DNA from: a virus
DNA length: 25,476 bases
Direction: 5' to 3' (one strand)
Virus record (IMG/VR): IMGVR_UViG_3300018481_000067
Location: 1-25,476 of that record
In this document: positions 1 to 24,434 of the stretch, piece after piece
Layout: every line of letters begins with the position of its first letter
How positions within the stretch are numbered: position 1 is the stretch's first letter
Program-made: the position numbers and the translations under genes
The notes under the pieces: model-generated
Seen by the model: only the letters and a program-made list of their open reading frames with translations
The model's database searches: none
What the model was told of the DNA's origin: nothing

Positions 1-135
1 CGCGCCAAGGACATGCTGATCCGGGGCGGCGAGAACATCTACTGCGTCGAGGTCGAGAACGCGCTCTACGACCATCCGGCCGTCATGGACGCCGCCGTCG
101 TCGGCCGTGCGCACAAGACGCTCGGTGAGGAGCCG
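1..135 (+). other. Acyl-CoA ligase C-terminal fragment (chimeric)
   Basis: The reading frame is open from base 1 and reads as the hinge and start of the C-terminal subdomain of an adenylate-forming (ANL) fatty-acyl-CoA ligase: [20 protein letters not shown], then [11 protein letters not shown] and TLGEEP. The K-D plus GGENI...EVE pattern is the A8 hinge motif of this family. Residues that should follow (the rest of the C-terminal subdomain and its catalytic lysine) are missing, because the frame turns into phage protease sequence after about base 135. The piece resembles actinobacterial FadD-type ligases. It has no role in a phage structural operon, so I read it as a contig chimera or recombination scar. 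Confidence 0.85.
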
Positions 136-12755: not shown

Positions 12756-14543
12756 ATGGGTAGCAGGAGTCCGGGCCTGATCGCACGGCCCACCACATCT
12801 GCGGACTGCGTGTCACCCGCTTTTGGGGCTGGACCGCCTGGACCGATCGGTCCTGAGGGTGCTCAGGGTCCGTGTGGTCCGACCGGCCCTACCGGCGCTT
12901 CGGGACCGCAGGGTCCGCAGGGCGAGTTCGGTGGCCCGACCGGCTCAACGGGTCCACAGGGTGCGGCGGGACCACCTGGGGTGACAGGTCCGACGGGGAC
13001 GCGCGGGGTCGAGGGCAACCAGGGTCCGGTGGGTCCGTCGGGGCCGAAGGGTGACCCGGGTGCGCCGGGCACGCCGGGGCCGACCGGGCCGCAGGGCAAC
13101 GCCGGTCCGCAGGGCGCGCAGGGCGCGCAGGGTGTGACCGGGCCGACGGGTGCGTTGGGTCCGACGGGGGCCGGGGTTCAGGGTCCGACCGGCACGTCAG
13201 GTGCGACGGGTCCGACCGGCCCGTCGGGTGCGTCGGGTTCAGCAGGTGCGCCGGGAGCCACTGGGGCGACGGGTCCAACTGGCACATCCGGTGGGCTGGG
13301 TGCGACGGGTCCGTCGGGTGCGTTGGGTGCGACCGGTCCGACCGGCCCACATGGCCCATCCGGGCCGACTGGTCCCACTGGGGCTGCGTCGACCGTCGTC
13401 GGACCTACCGGCCCGACGGGTGCGCAGGGCGCGGACGGCACATCGGTGACCATCGAAGGGTCGGTTCCGACCGGCCCGCCAGGGTTCGCCGGGTCGACCC
13501 CAGGTGAGGGCTGGATCAGCAACAACGACGGCCACCTGTGGGTGTGGGACGGCGACTCCTGGGTCGACGTAGGCGCGGTTCGTGGCCCGACCGGTCCGGC
13601 TGGGGTGGCGGGTGCCACCGGTCCTGCTGGTGCTGCCGGGGCTACGGGTGCCACCGGACCGTCGGGGACGGCTGGAGCCAACGGTGCGACTGGCCCGACG
13701 GGTCCGTCAGGGACTGCTGGTGCTGCCGGTCCGACCGGTTCGCAGGGTTCGACTGGGACGCCGGGGACCGCCGGGGCGACGGGGCCGACCGGCCCGTCAG
13801 GTACGGCGGGTGCCACTGGCCCGACTGGGGCGCACGGCCCGACCGGGGCGACGGGGACCAGTGGGGCGACCGGCCCGACAGGTCCGACCGGAGTTCAGGG
13901 TGTCGGCGGCATCCAGGGCATCCAAGGCATCCAAGGTCCACCCGGCCCGACAGCGGTCAGCACCGATCCGGGGAACTACGCCCGGCTCGGCACGGACACC
14001 AAGATATTCGTGCCCACCCCGGCGACGGGTGGCGGCACCGGAATCGACGAGGTGACGATCCAGTCGTCGTACCCGTCGCTGGAGGGCCTGGAACTGTGGG
14101 TCGACCCCAACGCGACGGCGGGTTCTTCAACCGGCAACCACTCGACGCTGAACGGGCTAGCCAACGACGACCACTTGCAGTACCACAACGACGCGCGCGG
14201 CGATGGCCGCTACATCAAGAAGACCGGCGACGCGATGGCCGGTCCGCTGGTGGTGCAGATTCCGACGTTGCAGAATCAGGCGGCGCGGCTACAGGACGCT
14301 GATGCGTGGAAGTTCCGCAAGGTCGTCGGCGGCAACGGGCTGACCCAGACCGGCGACGGGTCGCTGGCTCAGGACGTCACCCTGGCGGTCGGCAAGGGCG
14401 ACGGCATCGTGGTGGCGGCGGATCAGGTGTCAGTGGACACCAACTACCTGGACGTGCGGTACGTGACCCAAGCGAAGTTCGTCGTGTCCACTGCCGACCC
14501 GTCGGGCGTCTACCCGCAGGGTTCGGTGTGGGTCAAGTACTGA
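12756..14543 (+). CDS. Collagen-like tail fibre 1
   Basis: This 595-residue minor tail protein starts at an ATG behind AGGAG (12746-12750). Residues 1-25 are a short N-terminal region. Gly-X-Y triplets run from about 26 to 227, are broken by a 49-residue knob at 228-276 ([20 protein letters not shown]), and resume at 277-399. Most triplets are [12 protein letters not shown] and GPA, with almost no charge. Two small breaks occur in the first block (GAGVQG and the STVV site near 13390). The C-terminal domain contains [20 protein letters not shown] and DAMAGPLVV, a common phage fibre motif, and ends [11 protein letters not shown]. The triplets predict a trimeric collagen stalk displaying a receptor-binding tip. 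Confidence 0.88.
13437..13583 (+). repeat. Non-collagen knob module, copy A
   Basis: A 147-base segment encodes 49 residues interrupting the collagen stalk of fibre 1. The copy at 20773-20919 has exactly the same length, and by hand alignment 38 of 49 residues are identical. Shared phrases include [18 protein letters not shown] and DGHLWVW. The tryptophan-rich strands suggest a small beta fold that could bind sugar or set the register of the trimer. The DNA has diverged mostly at third positions. Confidence 0.8.
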
Positions 14544-14552
14544 GGAGCGGGC

Positions 14553-16270
14553 ATGGGTCTGGATGTCTACACCGGCTCGGCGTGGGTCGACGCTGAGGAC
14601 GTCCGTGTCTCCAACGGCTCGTCGTTCGTGCAGGCCAAGAAGGTCAAGGTGTCCGACGGCGCTGGCGGCTGGAGGCTGGCCTGGGTGCCGAAGGTGCCCG
14701 TCGTCACCGTGACGTTCTCCAACCAGGACGTGGAGACGGGTGAGAAGTTCGACACCATCGCCACGCTGTCGATCCCGGCCCCGGAGGGAACGACGGTCAG
14801 GTTCGACTTCCCCGGCTGGACGCAGACCATCGCCGCAGTGGAGGGCGCGACGACGGTGGTGAAGTCGCAGGGCTTCCATTCGACGGCGGGCTCGTACTCG
14901 TGGACCGCGACGGCGATCAACATGGGCGGCCAGACTACGTCGGCGGCGAAGAAGCAGAACGTCAGCGTCCCGGTCCCGATCCCCGACGTTCACTACCACG
15001 TGAAGGTGCCGTCCGGGGCGAGCGCGTCGACGATCCAGACGGAGATGAACAAGGCCCGCGACTGGTTCCTGGCGAACAAGAACGCGCCGGTCAACTTCGC
15101 TGACGAGGACACGTTCGCCTGCGTCGAGTTGGTCGAGAACGGCGTGTACAACCTGGGGTCCGCCGAGTTGAAGGCCCGGCGTGGGGTGCGGCTCGTCGGC
15201 GGCGGGTCGGGGGCGTCGCGCCCGCTGGTCAGCGCCCGGGGCTCGCACTTCATGAACACCGACAACAACGGCGGCGGCTCCTACAACAACCCGGACTACG
15301 ACTGGCTGGTTCACAACATCGAGGTCGACTGCTACAACCTGTCCGGTGGGCTGTCGATCGCGCATGTGAAGCGGTTCCAGGTGTCCAACTGCTACTTCCA
15401 CAACATGGGCTGGAAGAAGCACTACATCGAGGTGAACTCATCGGGCGGCCCGCGTGCCGACGGCACGTACAACGTCATCATCAAGGGCAACGAGTTCACC
15501 AACAGCCAGAACATCGCCAACCGTCGGGTCGAGGACGAGTGCGTCCAGTTGGACTACTCCTGGTCCGGGGCGGCGTCGAACACCGCCAACGACGGCACGA
15601 TCGCCAACAACGTGCTGATCGAGAACAACAACTTCCACGACGCCCCACGCGCGATCGGCAGCCACCACTTCCAGACCGAGGGTGGAGCGCCGGACAACTG
15701 GCATGCCAACGTGCTGATCCGCAACAACACGTTCACGAACATCGACCCGTCGCAGTACAACGGTGGTGACGCCCCGAACGGGATCGGCTCGGAGGGTGCG
15801 GTGCGGCCCTATGCGTGGGAGAACGTGCAGATTCTGAACAACACGTTCACGTCGTGCTTCCAGCCGATCTGCCTGTACATCCCCGACGACGCGCCGACCG
15901 CCTTCGGCAACCCGAAGTACTACCGGATCGCCGGGAACTATCTGCGCAACGTGACGCAGGACCGCTACGGCATCTACGGCACGTCGGGGCATGCGTCGCT
16001 GGATTTCGAGCAGGTCATCATCGAGAACAACATCGCCGACGGAACGTGGGACACCAGCCCGGACATCTACTTCGCGGGCTGCGACGACACCCGAGGTGCG
16101 GTGTCGGGCACCTCGTACGGGGTCCTCATCCGCAACAACCAGTTCAAGCCGACGAACATGACCGCAGCCGAGGAGAAGGCGTACAACAAGTACAAGGCGG
16201 CGGGTGCAGCGAACATCACCGGGGTGCTGATCGACGGCAACACGGTCAGCGACGGCACTGAGGACAACTC

Positions 16271-16274
<4 letters not shown>
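14553..16274 (+). CDS. Parallel beta-helix tailspike, putative depolymerase
   Basis: This 573-residue protein starts at an ATG behind GAGGAG. Residues 1-48 resemble a small tail-adaptor domain ([20 protein letters not shown]). Residues about 50-140 read as an Ig/PKD-like domain ([20 protein letters not shown]). From about 145 to 565 there is a right-handed parallel beta-helix with a repeating strand and asparagine-turn ladder: [85 protein letters not shown]. Such folds occur in phage tailspikes that cut host surface polysaccharides (pectate-lyase-like superfamily). Acidic residues are present (for example [12 protein letters not shown]) but I cannot prove a catalytic set. A non-enzymatic receptor-binding spike is the alternative. 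It overlaps the next gene by ATGA. Confidence 0.8.
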
Positions 16275-17889
<1,615 letters not shown>

Positions 17890-17893
<4 letters not shown>

Positions 17894-19899
17894 CGCTCAA
17901 CACGGCTGATGCCGTCTACGTCGGTGACGTGGCGGCGGATCGGGTGTACCTGGGGGATCTGCTGGTGTGGGAGTCCACACCCACGTCCTACCTGCCCCCG
18001 GAATGGATGCTCAACCCAGCCGACCCGTACCAGGGAAGCAACTCCGGGGAACACACACTGGGTCTACGGTTCACCGCTACCGCGCCGGGGATCATCACCC
18101 ACCTTCGCTACCACCATCTCGCGACCTGTCCTGCCCCGGACCATGCCCTGACCGTCTGGAACGACGCGGGGGCGAAACTGGCCGCTGTCAGCGACCCCGC
18201 TCCGAGCGGCTACACCGGCTGGCGTGAGGTGGCCCTGCCGCAGCCGTTGACCGTTGCCGCCGGGCAGCGGCTGACCGTCTCCTACGCCGTGAACAACGGG
18301 GCTCGCTACTCCTACCGATGGACGACTCCGGTATCCCTCGCCCCGCATCTGGTTATCGACTCTGCGGTCTGGGCGTACGGCTATGACCTAGTGCCGACCC
18401 TGACTTCTGCGGAGCAGTACATGGCCGATGTCACGTTCCGGGCCGAAGGCAGTGTTCCGTGGGCACCGGACAGCATCGCCGGGCTGGTGACGTGGCTGGA
18501 CGCAGCCGACTACACACCCGGTTCCTGGCCCAACAAGAGCACCGGGCCGACGCCGACCATCGTCAGCAGTCCGGCGATGGTCAATGGTGCGCCGCAGAAC
18601 GGGCTGCCGACCGTTCGGTTCAAGATCAACGAGGGACGGCTGCGCTCGACCTTCCCGCACCCGGTCCACGACTACACGCTGGTCTACCTCGTCCGCTGGG
18701 TCGGGCCTAACGCCGGTCGGGCGTTCTCGGTGCAGTACCCACCCAGCAACATCACCATCGGGATGCACACCACATCGGCAGACACGATGTACGACAACGG
18801 GACGTGGCTCGGCGGGTACGGCTGGAACGGCTGGAATCCACCTCCTGGCCCGTGGCGGATGTACGAGGCCGACTGCCAGCAAGGGGCGGCGAGCCGGTTC
18901 TTCGTCGATGGGGAGTTCAAGGGCTCACCGGCTGCGATCGACGGCGGCGGACTCACTGGCGGCTGGGGCCTGAGCGGGTACGAGTCCACCGGGCCGGGCG
19001 AGACGATGGACATCGAGGTCGCTGAACTGGTGCTGTACAACCGCAAGTTGCCCGACGCTGAGCGCAAGCAGGTCGAGGACTACCTCTACGACAGATGGTT
19101 CGTTACTCATTGGGACCCCGACACGCAGGCATATCTGACGGCGACCGGCCTGAACGTCTCGTACGCCCCGGCGCTGGACGGGCTGGTGCGTGGGCTGAAA
19201 GACGCCGGGCTGTGGTCGAAGATGGTCGCGATCTACCCGTTCATCGGCGGCACCGAGGCGCTGCACAAGTGGAACCTCAAGGACCCGCGTGACGCTGACG
19301 ACGCCTACCGGCTGACGTTCCGGGCCGGGACACACTCACCGGCACTGGGCTACCAGCCCAACCCTGTAGCCATCGACGCCAACGGTCAGGGCCGCGCCGA
19401 TACCCACTTGGTCCCGCTGGGTCTGCTGGCGCAGAACTCGACCCACCTGTCGATGTACTCGTTGCAGAGCAAGGATGTCTACCAACGCTGCGACATGGGG
19501 GCTTACAACTGGGACGGGGCTTTGTCCCGGTTCCATGTCATCGCCCACTACCTAGGTGAGCGGTTCTACTACGGCATGGCCGAGAGTGGGGCATCAAGCG
19601 CTCCCTCACCGGCGTCGACGGGCCTGTTCGTTGCCACCCGCACGGGGGCGAATGAGCAAAGCGCGTACCGTAATGGCGTTTCGGTCGGAACCTCGTCGTC
19701 GCCATCCGTTTCGTTGCCGAGCATCGCCTTGCACATCGGCGAGATTTCCGGCTATGACCGGGAGTACAGCGACCTCCCTGTCGGGTTCGCATCCATCGGA
19801 GCAGGTCTAAGCGCGACCGACGTGGCTAGCCTGAACCTCGTCGTCACTGACTACCAGATCGCGCTCGGACGCCGCCCGGCTTTCACCGGGTTCTGGTGA
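17890..19899 (+). CDS. Multi-domain carbohydrate-binding-like tail fibre
   Basis: This 669-residue protein starts at the GTG overlapping the previous stop (GTGA, 17890-17893). Residues 1-28 are a short adaptor ([20 protein letters not shown]) of a kind seen at the start of actinophage minor tail proteins. Residues about 48-187 resemble DUF4082 ([20 protein letters not shown], then [20 protein letters not shown]). Residues about 195-400 look like a LamG/concanavalin-type lectin domain ([18 protein letters not shown] ... [18 protein letters not shown]). Residues about 405-669 are a further lectin-like phage domain ([40 protein letters not shown]). The stacking suggests a receptor-binding protein with several glycan-binding surfaces. 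No enzyme signature is seen. Confidence 0.75.
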
Positions 19900-20274: not shown

Positions 20275-23200
20275 GTGGCCGTCCTCAAGTATCAGGACCC
20301 GGACACACTGGTTTGGCATCCGCTGCTGGCGGGCGCTGCTGGTGCCACAGGTCCGACGGGTGCTCAGGGTCCGACCGGGGCGACGGGGGTGGCTGGTGCG
20401 ACGGGTGGAGTCGGACCTACTGGCGCTCAGGGCAGTGTCGGTCCAAGCGGTGCGACTGGTCCCCAGGGCGCTGCTGGTGTTACTGGCCCCACCGGGCCGC
20501 AGGGCGTCCAGGGTGTCTCCGGCCCTACGGGGCCGCAGGGTGGTCAGGGTGTCTCCGGCCCTACGGGACCGCAGGGTGTCGCGGGCGTGTCTGGACCCAC
20601 TGGGCCGCAGGGTGCGGTTGGTGCTACTGGTCCGTCAGGTCCGCAGGGGGCTCAGGGTGTCGTCGGTGCTACGGGACCAACAGGGACGCAGGGTCCGACT
20701 GGTTCGCAGGGAATCCAGGGTGCTGCGGGGGTCACCGGCCCGACGGGGGCGACGGGCCTCACCGGGCAGGATGGCACGTCGGTCACGATCACCGGCTCGG
20801 TCCCGACCGGGCCTCCCGGCTTCGCTGGCACAACCCCGGGTGAGGGCTGGATTTCGGAGGACGACGGCCACCTGTGGGTGTGGAGCGGCAGTGCCTGGGT
20901 CGACGCGGGACAGATCGTCGGGCCGACTGGACCCTTGGGTCCGACTGGCCCGCAGGGTGTCCAGGGAGTCACCGGCCCAACGGGTGGGCAGGGAGTTCAG
21001 GGTGTCCAGGGTGCGATCGGTCCGACTGGCCCGTTGGGGCCGACAGGTCCGGTTGGCATCACGGGGGCCACGGGTGCGACTGGTGGACAGGGAGTTCAGG
21101 GTGTCGTCGGTGCAACGGGTCCGCAGGGAGCGGTGGGCGCTACTGGGCCACAGGGTGTGGTTGGCCCCACAGGTGCTAGCGGACCCCAGGGCACTGCGGG
21201 TGTCGTCGGCCCGACGGGTGCCACCGGCCCGCAGGGGACCGCAGGCACGGCTGGGGTTACGGGTCCGACGGGTGCGCAGGGAACAGCGGGCGTGGTTGGC
21301 CCCACAGGACCGCAGGGAACCACGGGTGGTGTGGGTGCGACCGGCCCGCAGGGAGCAGCCGGGGCGGTAGGCGCGACCGGCCCGCAGGGCACGCAGGGTG
21401 TCGCGGGTCCGAGTGGCCCGACGGGGCCGGGTGGCGCGCAAGGTGGTGTAGGACCTACGGGGCCGCAAGGGACGCAAGGTGTCTCAGGCCCGACCGGGCC
21501 GGGTGGCGCGCAGGGTGTGACGGGTCCAACTGGGGCACAGGGTGTGCAAGGTGTGGTGGGTCCGACCGGGCCGCAGGGCACGCAGGGTGTCCAGGGTGTC
21601 GTCGGCCCGACGGGGGCGTCCGGCGCTCAGGGGCCGTCAGGTCCGCAGGGCGTGGCAGGCCCGACAGGTCCGCAGGGTACTGCTGGTTCGGTGGGTGCCA
21701 CCGGTCCGACGGGTGCTCAGGGCACAACCGGATCGCAGGGTCCGACCGGACCGTCAGGCACAGCGGGTACGGCTGGTGTGACTGGGCCGACTGGCCCGCA
21801 GGGCACCGCCGGTGGTGTGGGTCCGACCGGACCTCAGGGCACCGCTGGGGTGCAGGGTCCGTCAGGTCCGCAGGGCATCCAAGGTGTGACCGGGCCGCAG
21901 GGCAATGCGGGTGGGGCTGGCCCGACAGGTCCGGCTGGCTCAACAGGCGGCGTCGGCCCGACCGGACCCCAGGGCACAGCCGGTACTGCCGGTGGCGTGG
22001 GACCAACGGGGCCGCAGGGTGTCGTGGGTCCGACCGGTCCGCAAGGGACGGCTGGCACAGCGGGCGGTACTGGGGCGACCGGCCCTACGGGTGCGTCCGG
22101 CCCGAAGGGCGACACTGGGACGACGGGTGGCGTTGGTCCGACAGGTCCGCAGGGCACCGCTGGCACAGCGGGTGGGATCGGTCCGACGGGTCCGTCCGGA
22201 ACCGTCGGGGCCACAGGTCCGACCGGCGCACACGGGCCGACCGGGACGACGGGTCCCACGGGTCCGCAGGGCACGGCGGGAACGACGGGTGGCGTGGGTC
22301 CGACAGGTCCCACAGGTGCGGCGTCCACGGTTGCTGGCCCGACCGGTCCGTCCGGTTCGATCGGTCCTACCGGGCCGACAGGCCCGGGGTTGACGCAGGC
22401 GCAGTCCGACACCCGGTACGTCAACGTGACCGGGGATACGGTGACTGGTGACCTGACCCTCGCCGCCACAGGCAGCGATGGCAGGTTCTTCATCTTCGGG
22501 CGTGACGGCTTGCCGCAATGGATGTTCGGCAACTCCGGCGGCAACCTCATCGCGGGCAGGTACGACGACACCGGGGAATGGGTCGACAACCCGTGGGGGA
22601 TGAACCGCGCTGACGGTTCGATGGTTGTCGACAAACCACTATGGCTGGGCGATCCGACGCCTTACGAAGACAATCACGCCGCCAGCAAGCAGTACGTGGA
22701 CACCACCAGGGTCGCCAAGGCCGGGGACACGATGACCGGCGACTTGAAGATCAACGTGGCCCGCCATCACGGCGTGGAGTTCCGTGAGCCGGGCGGTGAG
22801 CGCCGAGTCCTCGGCATACGCACGACAACCAGTGGGGTGGCGGGACTGGGGGCGTTCAAGGCTGAGGACGATCCGACGCAGCCGCTGATGTTGCAGCCGT
22901 TCGGGGTGGGTGCCCCGAATCAGGCGGAACATGCGGTCAACCGCGACTACTTGCTGACGCAGTACGACACCAGCACTGTCACGCCAGCATCGGGCTGGGC
23001 CGCGAACAGCATCACCTGGATGACGCGGAACGGGTGGGCGGTGGTCACGTTCGACAGCGTCAGGAAGACCACCGCCCCGGCAGCGAACGACATCATGTTC
23101 ACCCTGCCGGTCGGGGCGCGCCCGATATCTGGAACGTGGTGGCTGTCAATGGTCGGTAACGTGGCGACGACCGGCGGTGGCGCTCGGGTGTACCTGGGTT

Positions 23201-23295
23201 CGGTGGAGTCCAACGGGCAGGTGAAGATTCGCGGGCTGGTGATGCCCCCGGCGAACGAAATCCTGTACGCGACGATCGCTTTCCCGTGCGTGTGA
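20275..23295 (+). CDS. Collagen-like tail fibre 3 (long)
   Basis: This 1006-residue fibre is the largest protein in the window. The GTG start is preceded by GGGAGTAGGG. Residues 1-19 ([19 protein letters not shown]) are an N-terminal peptide. Gly-X-Y triplets occupy 20-166, stop for the 49-residue knob at 167-215, and continue at 216 to about 705 with one STVA break. The triplets are mainly [15 protein letters not shown] and GGV, nearly uncharged. The C-terminal 300 residues contain fibre motifs [37 protein letters not shown] and [10 protein letters not shown], then a terminal beta domain ([40 protein letters not shown]). A fully folded stalk of over 200 triplets would extend on the order of 150-200 nm. 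Confidence 0.88.
20503..20610 (+). repeat. Tandem 36-base collagen repeats
   Basis: Three consecutive 36-base units (20503-20538, 20539-20574, 20575-20610) encode [24 protein letters not shown] and [12 protein letters not shown]. The first two differ at only four bases, which indicates recent slippage or unequal recombination. Similar but more diverged units continue through the gene. Confidence 0.75.
20773..20919 (+). repeat. Non-collagen knob module, copy B
   Basis: A 147-base segment encodes 49 residues interrupting the stalk of fibre 3, homologous to 13437-13583 (38 of 49 residues identical by hand alignment). Both copies start right after a (Q/A)-D residue pair closing a triplet and end just before GPTGP. 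This implies a module moved or duplicated within the collagen frame. Confidence 0.8.
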
Positions 23296-23296
23296 T

Positions 23297-23392
23297 GTGG
23301 AACTCTTGGTCTACGTCGGCTTCTGGATACTGTGGGCGGCGGCCCTGTTCGCCATCACATACTTCGCGTTCTGGTTCGGCAACAAGTTCTGA
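23297..23392 (+). CDS. 31-residue single-helix membrane protein
   Basis: This very short gene starts at a GTG one base after the stop of collagen fibre 3, so it depends on translational coupling. The product begins MELLVYVGFWILWAAALF, continues AITYFAFW and ends FGNKF. Almost the whole chain is one hydrophobic helix with an acidic start and a basic end. Its stop is followed at once by GAGGAGG, the ribosome site of the next small gene. Function is unknown; small one-helix proteins near phage lysis genes may be holins, antiholins or exclusion proteins. An overlapping frame from 23295 gives a Ser/Arg-rich, unlikely peptide. Confidence 0.55.
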   Translation: MELLVYVGFWILWAAALFAITYFAFWFGNKF

Positions 23393-23401
23393 GGAGGCAC
23401 G

Positions 23402-23488
23402 ATGAACGGACTGAATCTGCTGTGGACAGTGCTGGCCGTGGTGATCGCCGTGCTGCTCATCATCTATCTGGTGAACGCTCTGGGCTGA
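23402..23488 (+). CDS. 28-residue single-helix membrane protein
   Basis: An ATG six bases after a strong GAGGAGG (23390-23396 region) opens a 28-residue frame. MNGLNLLWTVLAVVIAVLL is followed by IIYLVNALG. It consists of one strongly hydrophobic segment with no charged residue. The TGA stop overlaps the next ATG (TGATG, 23486-23490), so it is coupled to the two-helix protein downstream. The strong ribosome site and the stop/start overlap argue that it is translated. No function can be assigned. Confidence 0.55.
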   Translation: MNGLNLLWTVLAVVIAVLLIIYLVNALG

Positions 23489-23778
23489 TGAAGATCGACC
23501 CGGAGATGCAGGCGGCTGTCCGCAGCCGGTCGACCGGGGACATCCTCATGCTGGTGGTCGCTGCGACGATCTGCTTCTCGGTGCTCACCATCGGGGCGAC
23601 GGTCGCGTTCATCCGGGTCGCCAACCCGGAGCAGGACGTCTCAGGGGGGGCGGCTTTCATCAGTGACACGATCAACACGCTGATCGGCCTGCTGGCGGGG
23701 TTCCTCGCCGGGCGCACCGATGCGACGGCGCAGCGGCGGGCAGTGCTGCGGGACCTCAAGCCGGATGCTGAGGACTGA
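23488..23778 (+). CDS. Two-helix membrane protein, holin-like
   Basis: This 96-residue protein starts at the ATG in the TGATG overlap. An amphipathic N-terminus ([17 protein letters not shown]) leads into a first membrane helix at residues 19-42 ([20 protein letters not shown]), a short polar loop ([12 protein letters not shown]), and a second helix at about 55-75 ([20 protein letters not shown]). The tail is charged ([20 protein letters not shown]). Size, two helices and a highly charged end match class II holins and small phage membrane proteins of actinophages. No endolysin lies next to it in this window, so holin activity is inference. Confidence 0.6.
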
Positions 23779-23780
23779 GG

Positions 23781-24434
23781 GTGCTGGATCGACTGACGTC
23801 CCGTCCGATGCTCGCCTATGGGCTGGTCGTGCTCCTGTTGATCGGTTCGATCGCGCTGTCGCTGCTGACAGCGCCGCCGACATCTGTCACGCCGGTCGCT
23901 GGGGATGGGTCCAGCGCGGTGGGTCCGGTGGGACCTCCTGGGCCAGCGGGGCCACCGGGACCCCGGGGTCTGCGTGGTACGAACGGCAGCAATGGTGAGG
24001 ATGGCGCGCGCGGCCCGCGCGGTTCGTCGGGGGAGCAGGGGGAACAGGGGTCGCAGGGTTCGCGTGGCCCGCAGGGGTCGCGTGGCCCGCAGGGATCGCA
24101 GGGTTCGCGTGGCCCGCAGGGTGCTACTGGCCCGCAGGGTGAGCGTGGTCCGCAGGGTGAGCGCGGCTCACAGGGGAGGCAAGGCCCGCCCGGTCCGTCG
24201 ACGGGGGTGCCTGGACCGCAGGGACCGCCTGGACCGAGGGGACAACGAGGTCCGCGCGGGGTGCCTGGGCCGCAGGGGCAGCAGGGTCCGCGAGGCGTGC
24301 CGGGGCCACGGGGGCCGCAGGGTCCGCGAGGACTGCCCGGCATGACGTGCCCGCCGGGCTTCACACCTGAGACGGTTACTCTGCCCACGCTGTTCGATGA
24401 CACGCTGACGCTGTACGTCTGCGCGGCCAACTAG
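23781..24434 (+). CDS. Membrane-anchored collagen-like protein
   Basis: This 217-residue protein starts at GTG two bases after the previous stop. Residues 1-10 ([10 protein letters not shown]) are basic, 11-31 are a membrane helix ([19 protein letters not shown]), and 32-47 a linker. About 47 Gly-X-Y triplets follow (48-189), with one break at [10 protein letters not shown]-terminal cap of about 28 residues holds two cysteines (190 and 214). Positive-inside topology would place the collagen outside the membrane. Triplets are rich in Arg and Glu (GPR, GER, GEQ, GSR), unlike the uncharged tail fibres; such pairs stabilise collagen without hydroxyproline. There is no lipobox. The cap may nucleate trimers through a disulfide. 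Its role is unknown. Confidence 0.8.

What the first reader, a model, noticed from the sequence alone, without database searches (positions are those of the whole stretch)
23781..24434. Membrane-anchored, charge-rich collagen beside holin-like genes
Unlike the tail fibres, this collagen has an N-terminal membrane helix, Arg/Glu-rich triplets and a two-cysteine cap. It probably projects a rod of roughly 40 nm out of the host membrane into the cell wall. It is encoded with three small membrane proteins, not with the tail fibres. It could span the envelope during lysis like a spanin-type rod, block incoming phage, or decorate the infected cell. I know of no described phage system with this form.
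Basis: partly seen in the sequence, partly recalled or inferred. Interest (0 to 1): 0.72.

Follow-up and report, generated by a model that had tools for sequence, protein, structure and literature searches.

The report
Membrane-anchored collagen rod in phages
Many uncultured viruses of actinobacteria carry a two-gene cassette, a small double-helix membrane protein followed by a membrane-anchored collagen rod about as long as a cell wall is thick, which probably helps the virus break open its host and has no counterpart in any isolated phage that we searched.

Summary
ORF 23781-24434 encodes an N-terminal membrane helix, 47 Gly-X-Y triplets (about 40 nm) and a two-cysteine C-terminal cap. It is the second gene of a conserved cassette: a 2-TM protein with a glycine zipper (23488-23778), then the collagen, usually coupled by an ATGA overlap. 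A search with the 2-TM protein found 55 viral loci; 47 of the 53 that could be judged have the TM-collagen-cap gene directly downstream. A reciprocal search with the 34-aa cap alone always led to a rod of 25-51 triplets (35 of 35), mostly behind the same 2-TM gene. Neither gene matches any of 50,697 isolated phage records. Rod length is constrained (22-47 nm) but charge is not (-22 to +12), so 'charge-rich' is not a defining trait. In about a dozen lineages the cassette adjoins unrelated endolysins (GH25, M23, M15, Amidase_2) or holins; in others it lies about 25 kb away. Best explanation: an accessory lysis or envelope-disruption module that works like the 2-TMD holin plus 1-TMD LysZ arrangement of corynephages but is not homologous to it. 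Superinfection exclusion remains a serious rival. Everything about function is inference.

The parts
23297..23392 (+). micro-ORF, 31 aa, one predicted TM helix (MELLVYVGFWILWAAALFAITYFAFWFGNKF)
   Evidence: membership in the cassette is inference, micro-TM ORFs just upstream occur in 5 of 43 cassettes against 4 of 720 random places
23402..23488 (+). micro-ORF, 28 aa, one predicted TM helix (MNGLNLLWTVLAVVIAVLLIIYLVNALG); its stop overlaps the start of the 2-TM gene by one base
23488..23778 (+). 2-TM partner protein, 96 aa, charges suggest N-in/C-in, glycine zipper GLLAGFLAG in TM2
   Evidence: alignment of 40 homologues, model with two long helices, mean pLDDT 87
23781..24434 (+). TM-anchored collagen protein, 217 aa
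23808..23873 (+). N-terminal membrane helix (about residues 10-31)
   Evidence: hydropathy; conserved small-residue face in the family
23922..24347 (+). collagen rod, residues 48-189, 47 triplets with one 1-residue interruption at Thr141
24348..24431 (+). C-terminal cap, CPPGF...LYVC, Cys190 and Cys214
   Evidence: both Cys invariant in A1 and A3; modelled as a beta-hairpin in homologue L100

Best explanation
The pair 23488-24434 is an accessory lysis (envelope-disruption) module of actinobacterial phages. Shown from sequence: a 2-TM protein with a conserved GxxxGxxxG face is followed, usually with ATGA overlap, by a 1-TM protein whose exported part is a 22-47 nm collagen rod ending in a two-cysteine cap. 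Inferred: the 2-TM protein oligomerises in the cytoplasmic membrane through its glycine zipper, as a holin or holin partner. The collagen protein inserts N-in/C-out, trimerises through the small-residue face of its helix and through the C-terminal hairpin (which would start triple-helix folding much as a foldon does, with the disulphide formed outside the cytoplasm), and reaches across the wall to touch outer-wall material with its cap. Once endolysin has cut the peptidoglycan, this membrane-to-wall link helps tear or unblock the envelope, the task given to LysZ in corynephages and to spanins in Gram-negative hosts.
For: Conserved gene order and coupling: 47 of 53 judgeable 2-TM loci have the collagen gene directly downstream; in the reciprocal cap-only search, 35 of 35 parsed cap ORFs are collagen rods and 27 have the 2-TM gene directly upstream. 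Neighbours include unrelated peptidoglycan hydrolases: GH25 (overlapping the 2-TM start in L092), M23, Amidase_2, M15_3, M15_4, and PHROG holins directly upstream (L120) or downstream (L098). Of 27 records with an endolysin-type domain, 13 have it within 3 kb on the same strand, against about 3.4 by random placement. Rod length is limited to 22-47 nm, median 31, unlike other phage collagens, median 58 nm, 5-95% range 24-199. The helix face and the cap cysteines are conserved while linker and charge are free. Viruses are of actinobacterial type: capsid matches are mostly actinophages, WhiB in 11 of 39 records. The same gene order, 2-TMD holin then 1-TMD protein, is reported in corynephages, where the latter (LysZ) is needed for lysis (PMC13148394; PMC13056207).
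Against: In the DnaB-linked lineage (L104, L125, L131, L134, L137, L138 and others) the pair heads the replication genes, and the endolysin, with its own classical holin in those read closely, lies about 25-28 kb away; in L096, L100 and L141 it is also distant and on the opposite strand. No endolysin domain was found in the window itself, though the record is a fragment. Six 2-TM loci have no collagen gene downstream (L116, L122, L126, L130, L136, L142). Adjacency counts are not corrected for kinship of the records. Neither gene is homologous to the CL31 holin or to clg_49. No expression or phenotype data exist.
Confidence: 0.5

Rival explanations
1. Superinfection exclusion or surface shield: made early, the rod array projects through the wall and blocks receptor access or DNA entry of other phages; the 2-TM protein anchors or clusters it in the membrane.
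For: In the DnaB-linked lineage the pair lies at the head of the replication genes, 25-28 kb from an endolysin that has its own holin. The rods are long enough to pass a wall; drift of rod charge and of the cap turn (three cap types) fits an arms race.
Against: In about a dozen other lineages the pair sits inside or beside lysis genes of unrelated types. No match to known defence families.
Confidence: 0.25
2. Secreted collagen: the N-terminal helix is a signal peptide, and a free, disulphide-capped trimer is released to coat the cell, the progeny or the surroundings.
For: 16 of 38 homologues have an AxA motif near the end of the helix, 30 of 38 a looser [AVST]xA motif.
Against: The window has neither motif. 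The helix is long (19-30 uncharged residues) and keeps a conserved small-residue face (G 29/33, A/S 30/33, L 32/33) while the following linker is free, which is not expected of a disposable signal peptide. Constant linkage to a membrane partner.
Confidence: 0.12
3. Virion part: a short fibre or tail-tip protein like the other collagens of the window.
For: In the window it lies directly after a run of collagen-type tail-fibre genes.
Against: N-terminal membrane helix and no tail-attachment domain; rod length range much narrower than in other phage collagens; in relatives it lies beside lysis or replication genes.
Confidence: 0.06

Closest known systems
LysZ of Corynebacterium glutamicum phages (McKitterick et al. 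2025, as described in PMC13148394 and PMC13056207)
   Same: Gene downstream of a 2-TMD holin, one TM helix, N-in/C-out, large extracytoplasmic part, similar size (about 170-180 aa against 159-232 aa), actinobacterial hosts, ATGA-type overlap in CL31.
   Different: clg_49 of CL31, presumed to be LysZ from its position, has no collagen repeat and no two-cysteine cap; no profile similarity of either gene.
LysF1a / LysF1b of F1 mycobacteriophages (PMC13056207)
   Same: Adjacent 2-TMD (88 aa, N-in/C-in) and 1-TMD genes near the lysins.
   Different: LysF1b is predicted N-out/C-in with a charged cytoplasmic part, the reverse of the topology inferred here; no collagen.
i-spanins and unimolecular spanins (PMC6139136)
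   Same: Membrane-anchored protein that spans the envelope and acts after the endolysin.
   Different: Spanins join inner and outer membranes of Gram-negative hosts; no o-spanin lipoprotein here and the hosts are actinobacteria.
Streptococcal Scl1/Scl2 and collagen-like adhesin Lcl
   Same: Surface-projecting prokaryotic collagen rods; NCBIfam models hit the repeat only.
   Different: Scores 37-93 bits against cut-offs of 325-500, no LPXTG anchor, viral, paired with a 2-TM gene.
Collagen-like phage tail fibres (PHROG tail families)
   Same: Gly-X-Y repeat.
   Different: TM anchor, two-cysteine cap, confined rod length, no tail domains, different partner.

Membership tests
LysZ (corynephage lysis protein) | gene directly downstream of a 2-TMD membrane protein | tested here: met
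   mostly -4 overlap; 47 of 53 judgeable loci
LysZ (corynephage lysis protein) | single TM helix, N-in/C-out | tested here: inconclusive
   one helix by hydropathy, short mostly basic N-terminus; topology not measured
LysZ (corynephage lysis protein) | sequence homology | tested here: not met
   hhalign against CL31 clg_49: probability 0.2%; identity of clg_49 as LysZ is itself presumed
LysZ (corynephage lysis protein) | loss gives a lysis defect that depends on lipoglycan | not testable with these tools
   needs phage genetics
holin (2-TM gene) | small protein with two TM helices | tested here: met
holin (2-TM gene) | match to a known holin family | tested here: not met
   only weak hits to PHROGs of unknown function; 1 of 40 members weakly hits Phage_holin_3_3, E = 0.009
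holin (2-TM gene) | adjacent to an endolysin gene | tested here: inconclusive
   true in many lineages, not in others
spanin | outer-membrane lipoprotein component, or lipobox plus TM in one protein | tested here: not met
   the collagen protein of the window has no cysteine before the cap, hence no lipobox, and the 2-TM partner is not a lipoprotein
collagen-like tail fibre | tail-attachment or tail-tip domain | tested here: not met
   Pfam finds only Collagen in P0001, whereas fibre 16271-17893 has Phage_tail_C
prokaryotic collagen-like protein | Gly-X-Y repeat scoring above the Pfam Collagen cut-off | tested here: met
   91 bits against cut-off 27.2
known anti-phage defence family | match to a PADLOC model | tested here: not met
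   no hit for six proteins

The most novel reading that the evidence does not exclude
A collagen triple helix is used as an envelope-spanning device: phages of actinobacteria insert a translationally coupled 2-TM partner and a trimeric, disulphide-capped collagen rod, of length matched to the cell wall, into the host membrane during infection, to carry out lysis (or exclusion). It would be a class of phage membrane machine not seen in any isolated phage.
Probability: 0.55. Interest if true: 0.85.

Novelty: new variant of a known kind. Interest (0 to 1): 0.7.

Why it matters
How phages breach the thick, layered envelope of actinobacteria (including mycobacteria) after the wall is cut is an open question, raised recently by LysZ and LysF1b. 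A rigid rod of defined length anchored in the membrane beside holins and endolysins is a concrete and testable part for that step, and would be the first collagen known to us with such a task in a virus. The family is spread over many uncultured viruses and absent from 50,697 isolated phage records, so it was invisible to laboratory work.

Tried and rejected
Nearest isolated phage by DNA: none. Cap, collagen and 2-TM proteins against isolated phages: no match. Bacterial genomes: the only hit, L108, is a chance match inside an unrelated 518-aa ORF, so no prophage host was found. Solved structures: no relative of the cap, only chance hits for the 2-TM protein; fold searches gave nothing significant, as expected for a helical hairpin and a mostly unreliable monomer model. 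The first collagen-wide scan returned mostly unrelated repeat proteins and was used only for the length comparison. The charge pattern was considered as a defining feature and dropped. Homology to corynephage LysZ was tested and not found.

Full report
What is there. Window 23781-24434 encodes 217 aa beginning with GTG. It has one strong membrane helix near the N-terminus, a short linker, 31 Gly-X-Y triplets, one extra Thr, 16 more triplets, and an end [30 protein letters not shown] with two cysteines. At 0.286 nm per residue the rod is 40.6 nm long. Pfam sees only Collagen. Directly upstream are a 96-aa protein with two membrane helices (23488-23778) and two micro-ORFs of 28 and 31 aa, each a single helix. 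Downstream are a Methyltransf_24 protein and an HNH endonuclease on the other strand. The window is a 25,476-base viral record, probably a fragment.

It is one half of a conserved pair. A search of viral contigs with the 2-TM protein found 19 loci, and with its alignment 55. In 37 of the 43 loci parsed first, the gene directly downstream is a TM-collagen-cap protein, mostly overlapping the 2-TM stop by four bases. Reading the remaining loci by eye adds ten (L124, L125, L129, L131-L134, L138, L140, L141), leaves six without it (L116, L122, L126, L130, L136, L142), and two whose contig ends there (L106, L120) (L125, L132, L133 and L141 have the same gene maps as L124, L131, L131 and L140). That is 47 of 53 judgeable loci; several are near-duplicates, so the number of independent lineages is smaller. 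In the reverse direction, a search with the 34-residue cap alone, which holds neither helix nor repeat, found 43 loci. Of the 39 with new ids (some on contigs already seen), 35 gave a cap ORF, all with 25-51 triplets; 27 of those have the 2-TM gene directly upstream. Four of the eight others (L150, L151, L152, L154) share an apparently over-extended ORF start that defeats the helix and distance tests, and L161 is cut by the contig end. Both genes are under purifying selection (dN/dS about 0.05-0.56 for the 2-TM gene, 0.30-0.37 for the collagen gene, five pairs).

What is conserved and what is not. In the collagen protein the two cap cysteines (22-26 residues apart) and the CPxG start are nearly constant, and so is one face of the membrane helix: G (29/33), Y/F (32/33), A/S (30/33), L (32/33) and A/S/G (32/33), while the linker that follows is free. 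Rod length runs from 22 to 47 nm, median 31 (the upper values for L110, L104, L128 and L135 include upstream sequence caught by the pattern). Other phage collagens found here have median 58 nm with a 5-95% range of 24-199. The cap exists in at least three versions: VHQRxPVDxD in most, a NAPGGQ version (for example L118, L143), and that of the window. In a model of homologue L100 the cap is a beta-hairpin with pLDDT above 90, while the repeat is unreliable, as expected for a monomer of a trimeric fold. The 2-TM protein keeps RSTGDLLVL..A.TVC in helix 1 and [16 protein letters not shown] in helix 2, which holds a glycine zipper GxxxGxxxG; the model is a helical hairpin, pLDDT 87. Charges suggest N-in/C-in.

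Hosts. The major capsid protein best resembles those of phages of Curtobacterium, Arthrobacter and Gordonia, and most of its 848 matching records are Mycobacterium, Gordonia and Microbacterium phages, although the single top hit is a cyanobacterial phage. WhiB, which among the 14 control genomes occurs only in the actinobacterium, is in 11 of 39 records. No bacterial genome with the pair was found.

Genomic setting. The gene just before or near the pair is often a peptidoglycan hydrolase, of unrelated kinds in different lineages: GH25 (L092, L114), M23 (L110-L112, L107, L097, L119), Amidase_2 (L113, L139), M15_3 (L117), M15_4 (L118, L119, L120, L130). PHROG holins lie directly upstream in L120 and directly downstream in L098. 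Of 27 records with an endolysin-type domain, 13 have it within 3 kb on the same strand, about 3.4 being expected from random placement; this count ignores kinship. Against this, in the DnaB-linked lineage the pair heads the replication genes, 25-28 kb from an endolysin that has its own classical holin, and in L096, L100 and L141 it is also far off. In the window no endolysin domain was found in the ORFs scanned.

How it most likely works. The position beside lysis genes of many unrelated kinds, the coupling with a 2-TM protein, the single anchor and a rod with the thickness of a wall point to an accessory lysis or envelope-disruption module. Two papers report that in corynephages a 2-TMD holin is followed by a 1-TMD protein, LysZ, that is needed for proper lysis and is thought to act on lipid-anchored glycans outside the membrane (PMC13148394; PMC13056207). 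In CL31 the same order is seen: lysin, 80-aa holin, 171-aa one-helix protein, the last presumed by me to be LysZ. Neither protein is related in sequence to the pair. So the pair works like that arrangement, if I am right, but is not a member of it. The steps 'oligomerises', 'trimerises', 'spans the wall', 'binds wall material' and 'aids lysis' are inference. The foldon comparison for the cap rests on my knowledge of T4 fibritin, not on a test here, and so does the statement that rod length is near the thickness of a Gram-positive wall.

Rivals. Superinfection exclusion explains the position beside replication genes in the DnaB-linked lineage and the drift of rod and cap, but not the repeated partnership with lysis genes. 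A cleaved, secreted rod is possible (AxA near the helix end in 16 of 38, none in the window), but the conserved helix face speaks against it. A virion part is least likely.

Novelty. No match in 50,697 isolated phage records for either gene, none in Pfam, NCBIfam or PADLOC beyond the collagen repeat, and no description of a membrane-anchored phage collagen in the papers searched (subscription journals are mostly not held). I file it as a new variant of a known kind, because the probable role, a 1-TM partner of a 2-TM protein in actinophage lysis, has a precedent, while the collagen build has none that I found.

Noticed in passing
window 1-135: The first frame begins with a piece of an acyl-CoA synthetase (Pfam AMP-binding_C, residues 17-45, E = 2e-6) and then turns into a phage protease-like sequence; probably a chimeric contig end.
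   Followed up: partly
window 12756-14543, 16271-17893, 20275-23295: Three long collagen-like fibre genes, the last with about 700 residues of Gly-X-Y repeat, alternate with 14553-16274 (no Pfam hit) and 17890-19899 (DUF4082, weak Laminin_G).
   Followed up: no
L092, L110-L112 and relatives: Endolysin and the 2-TM/collagen pair lie between the portal gene and the major capsid gene, an unusual place for lysis genes.
   Followed up: no
L130 5983-6997: In this low-GC (47%) virus the 2-TM gene is followed directly by an M15-type hydrolase instead of the collagen gene.
   Followed up: partly
L160, L163, L172, L173, L178, L180: A divergent branch of the pair, with caps close to the main type but 2-TM proteins that match the profile only weakly (E 1e-6 to 1e-15).
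   Followed up: no
L096 6803-12219 and L100 6752-12231: The pair is followed directly by a giant ORF of 1805-1826 aa or more of unknown function.
   Followed up: no
L184 1900-2415 (CL31 clg_49): Annotated as exonuclease in MW582634, but its sequence is a one-helix membrane protein in the position of LysZ; probably misannotated.
   Followed up: partly
L092 3570-4274, also L089, L114, L116, L139, L143: A recurrent neighbour upstream of the endolysin or pair that matches phrog_12298, 'membrane associated protein'.
   Followed up: no
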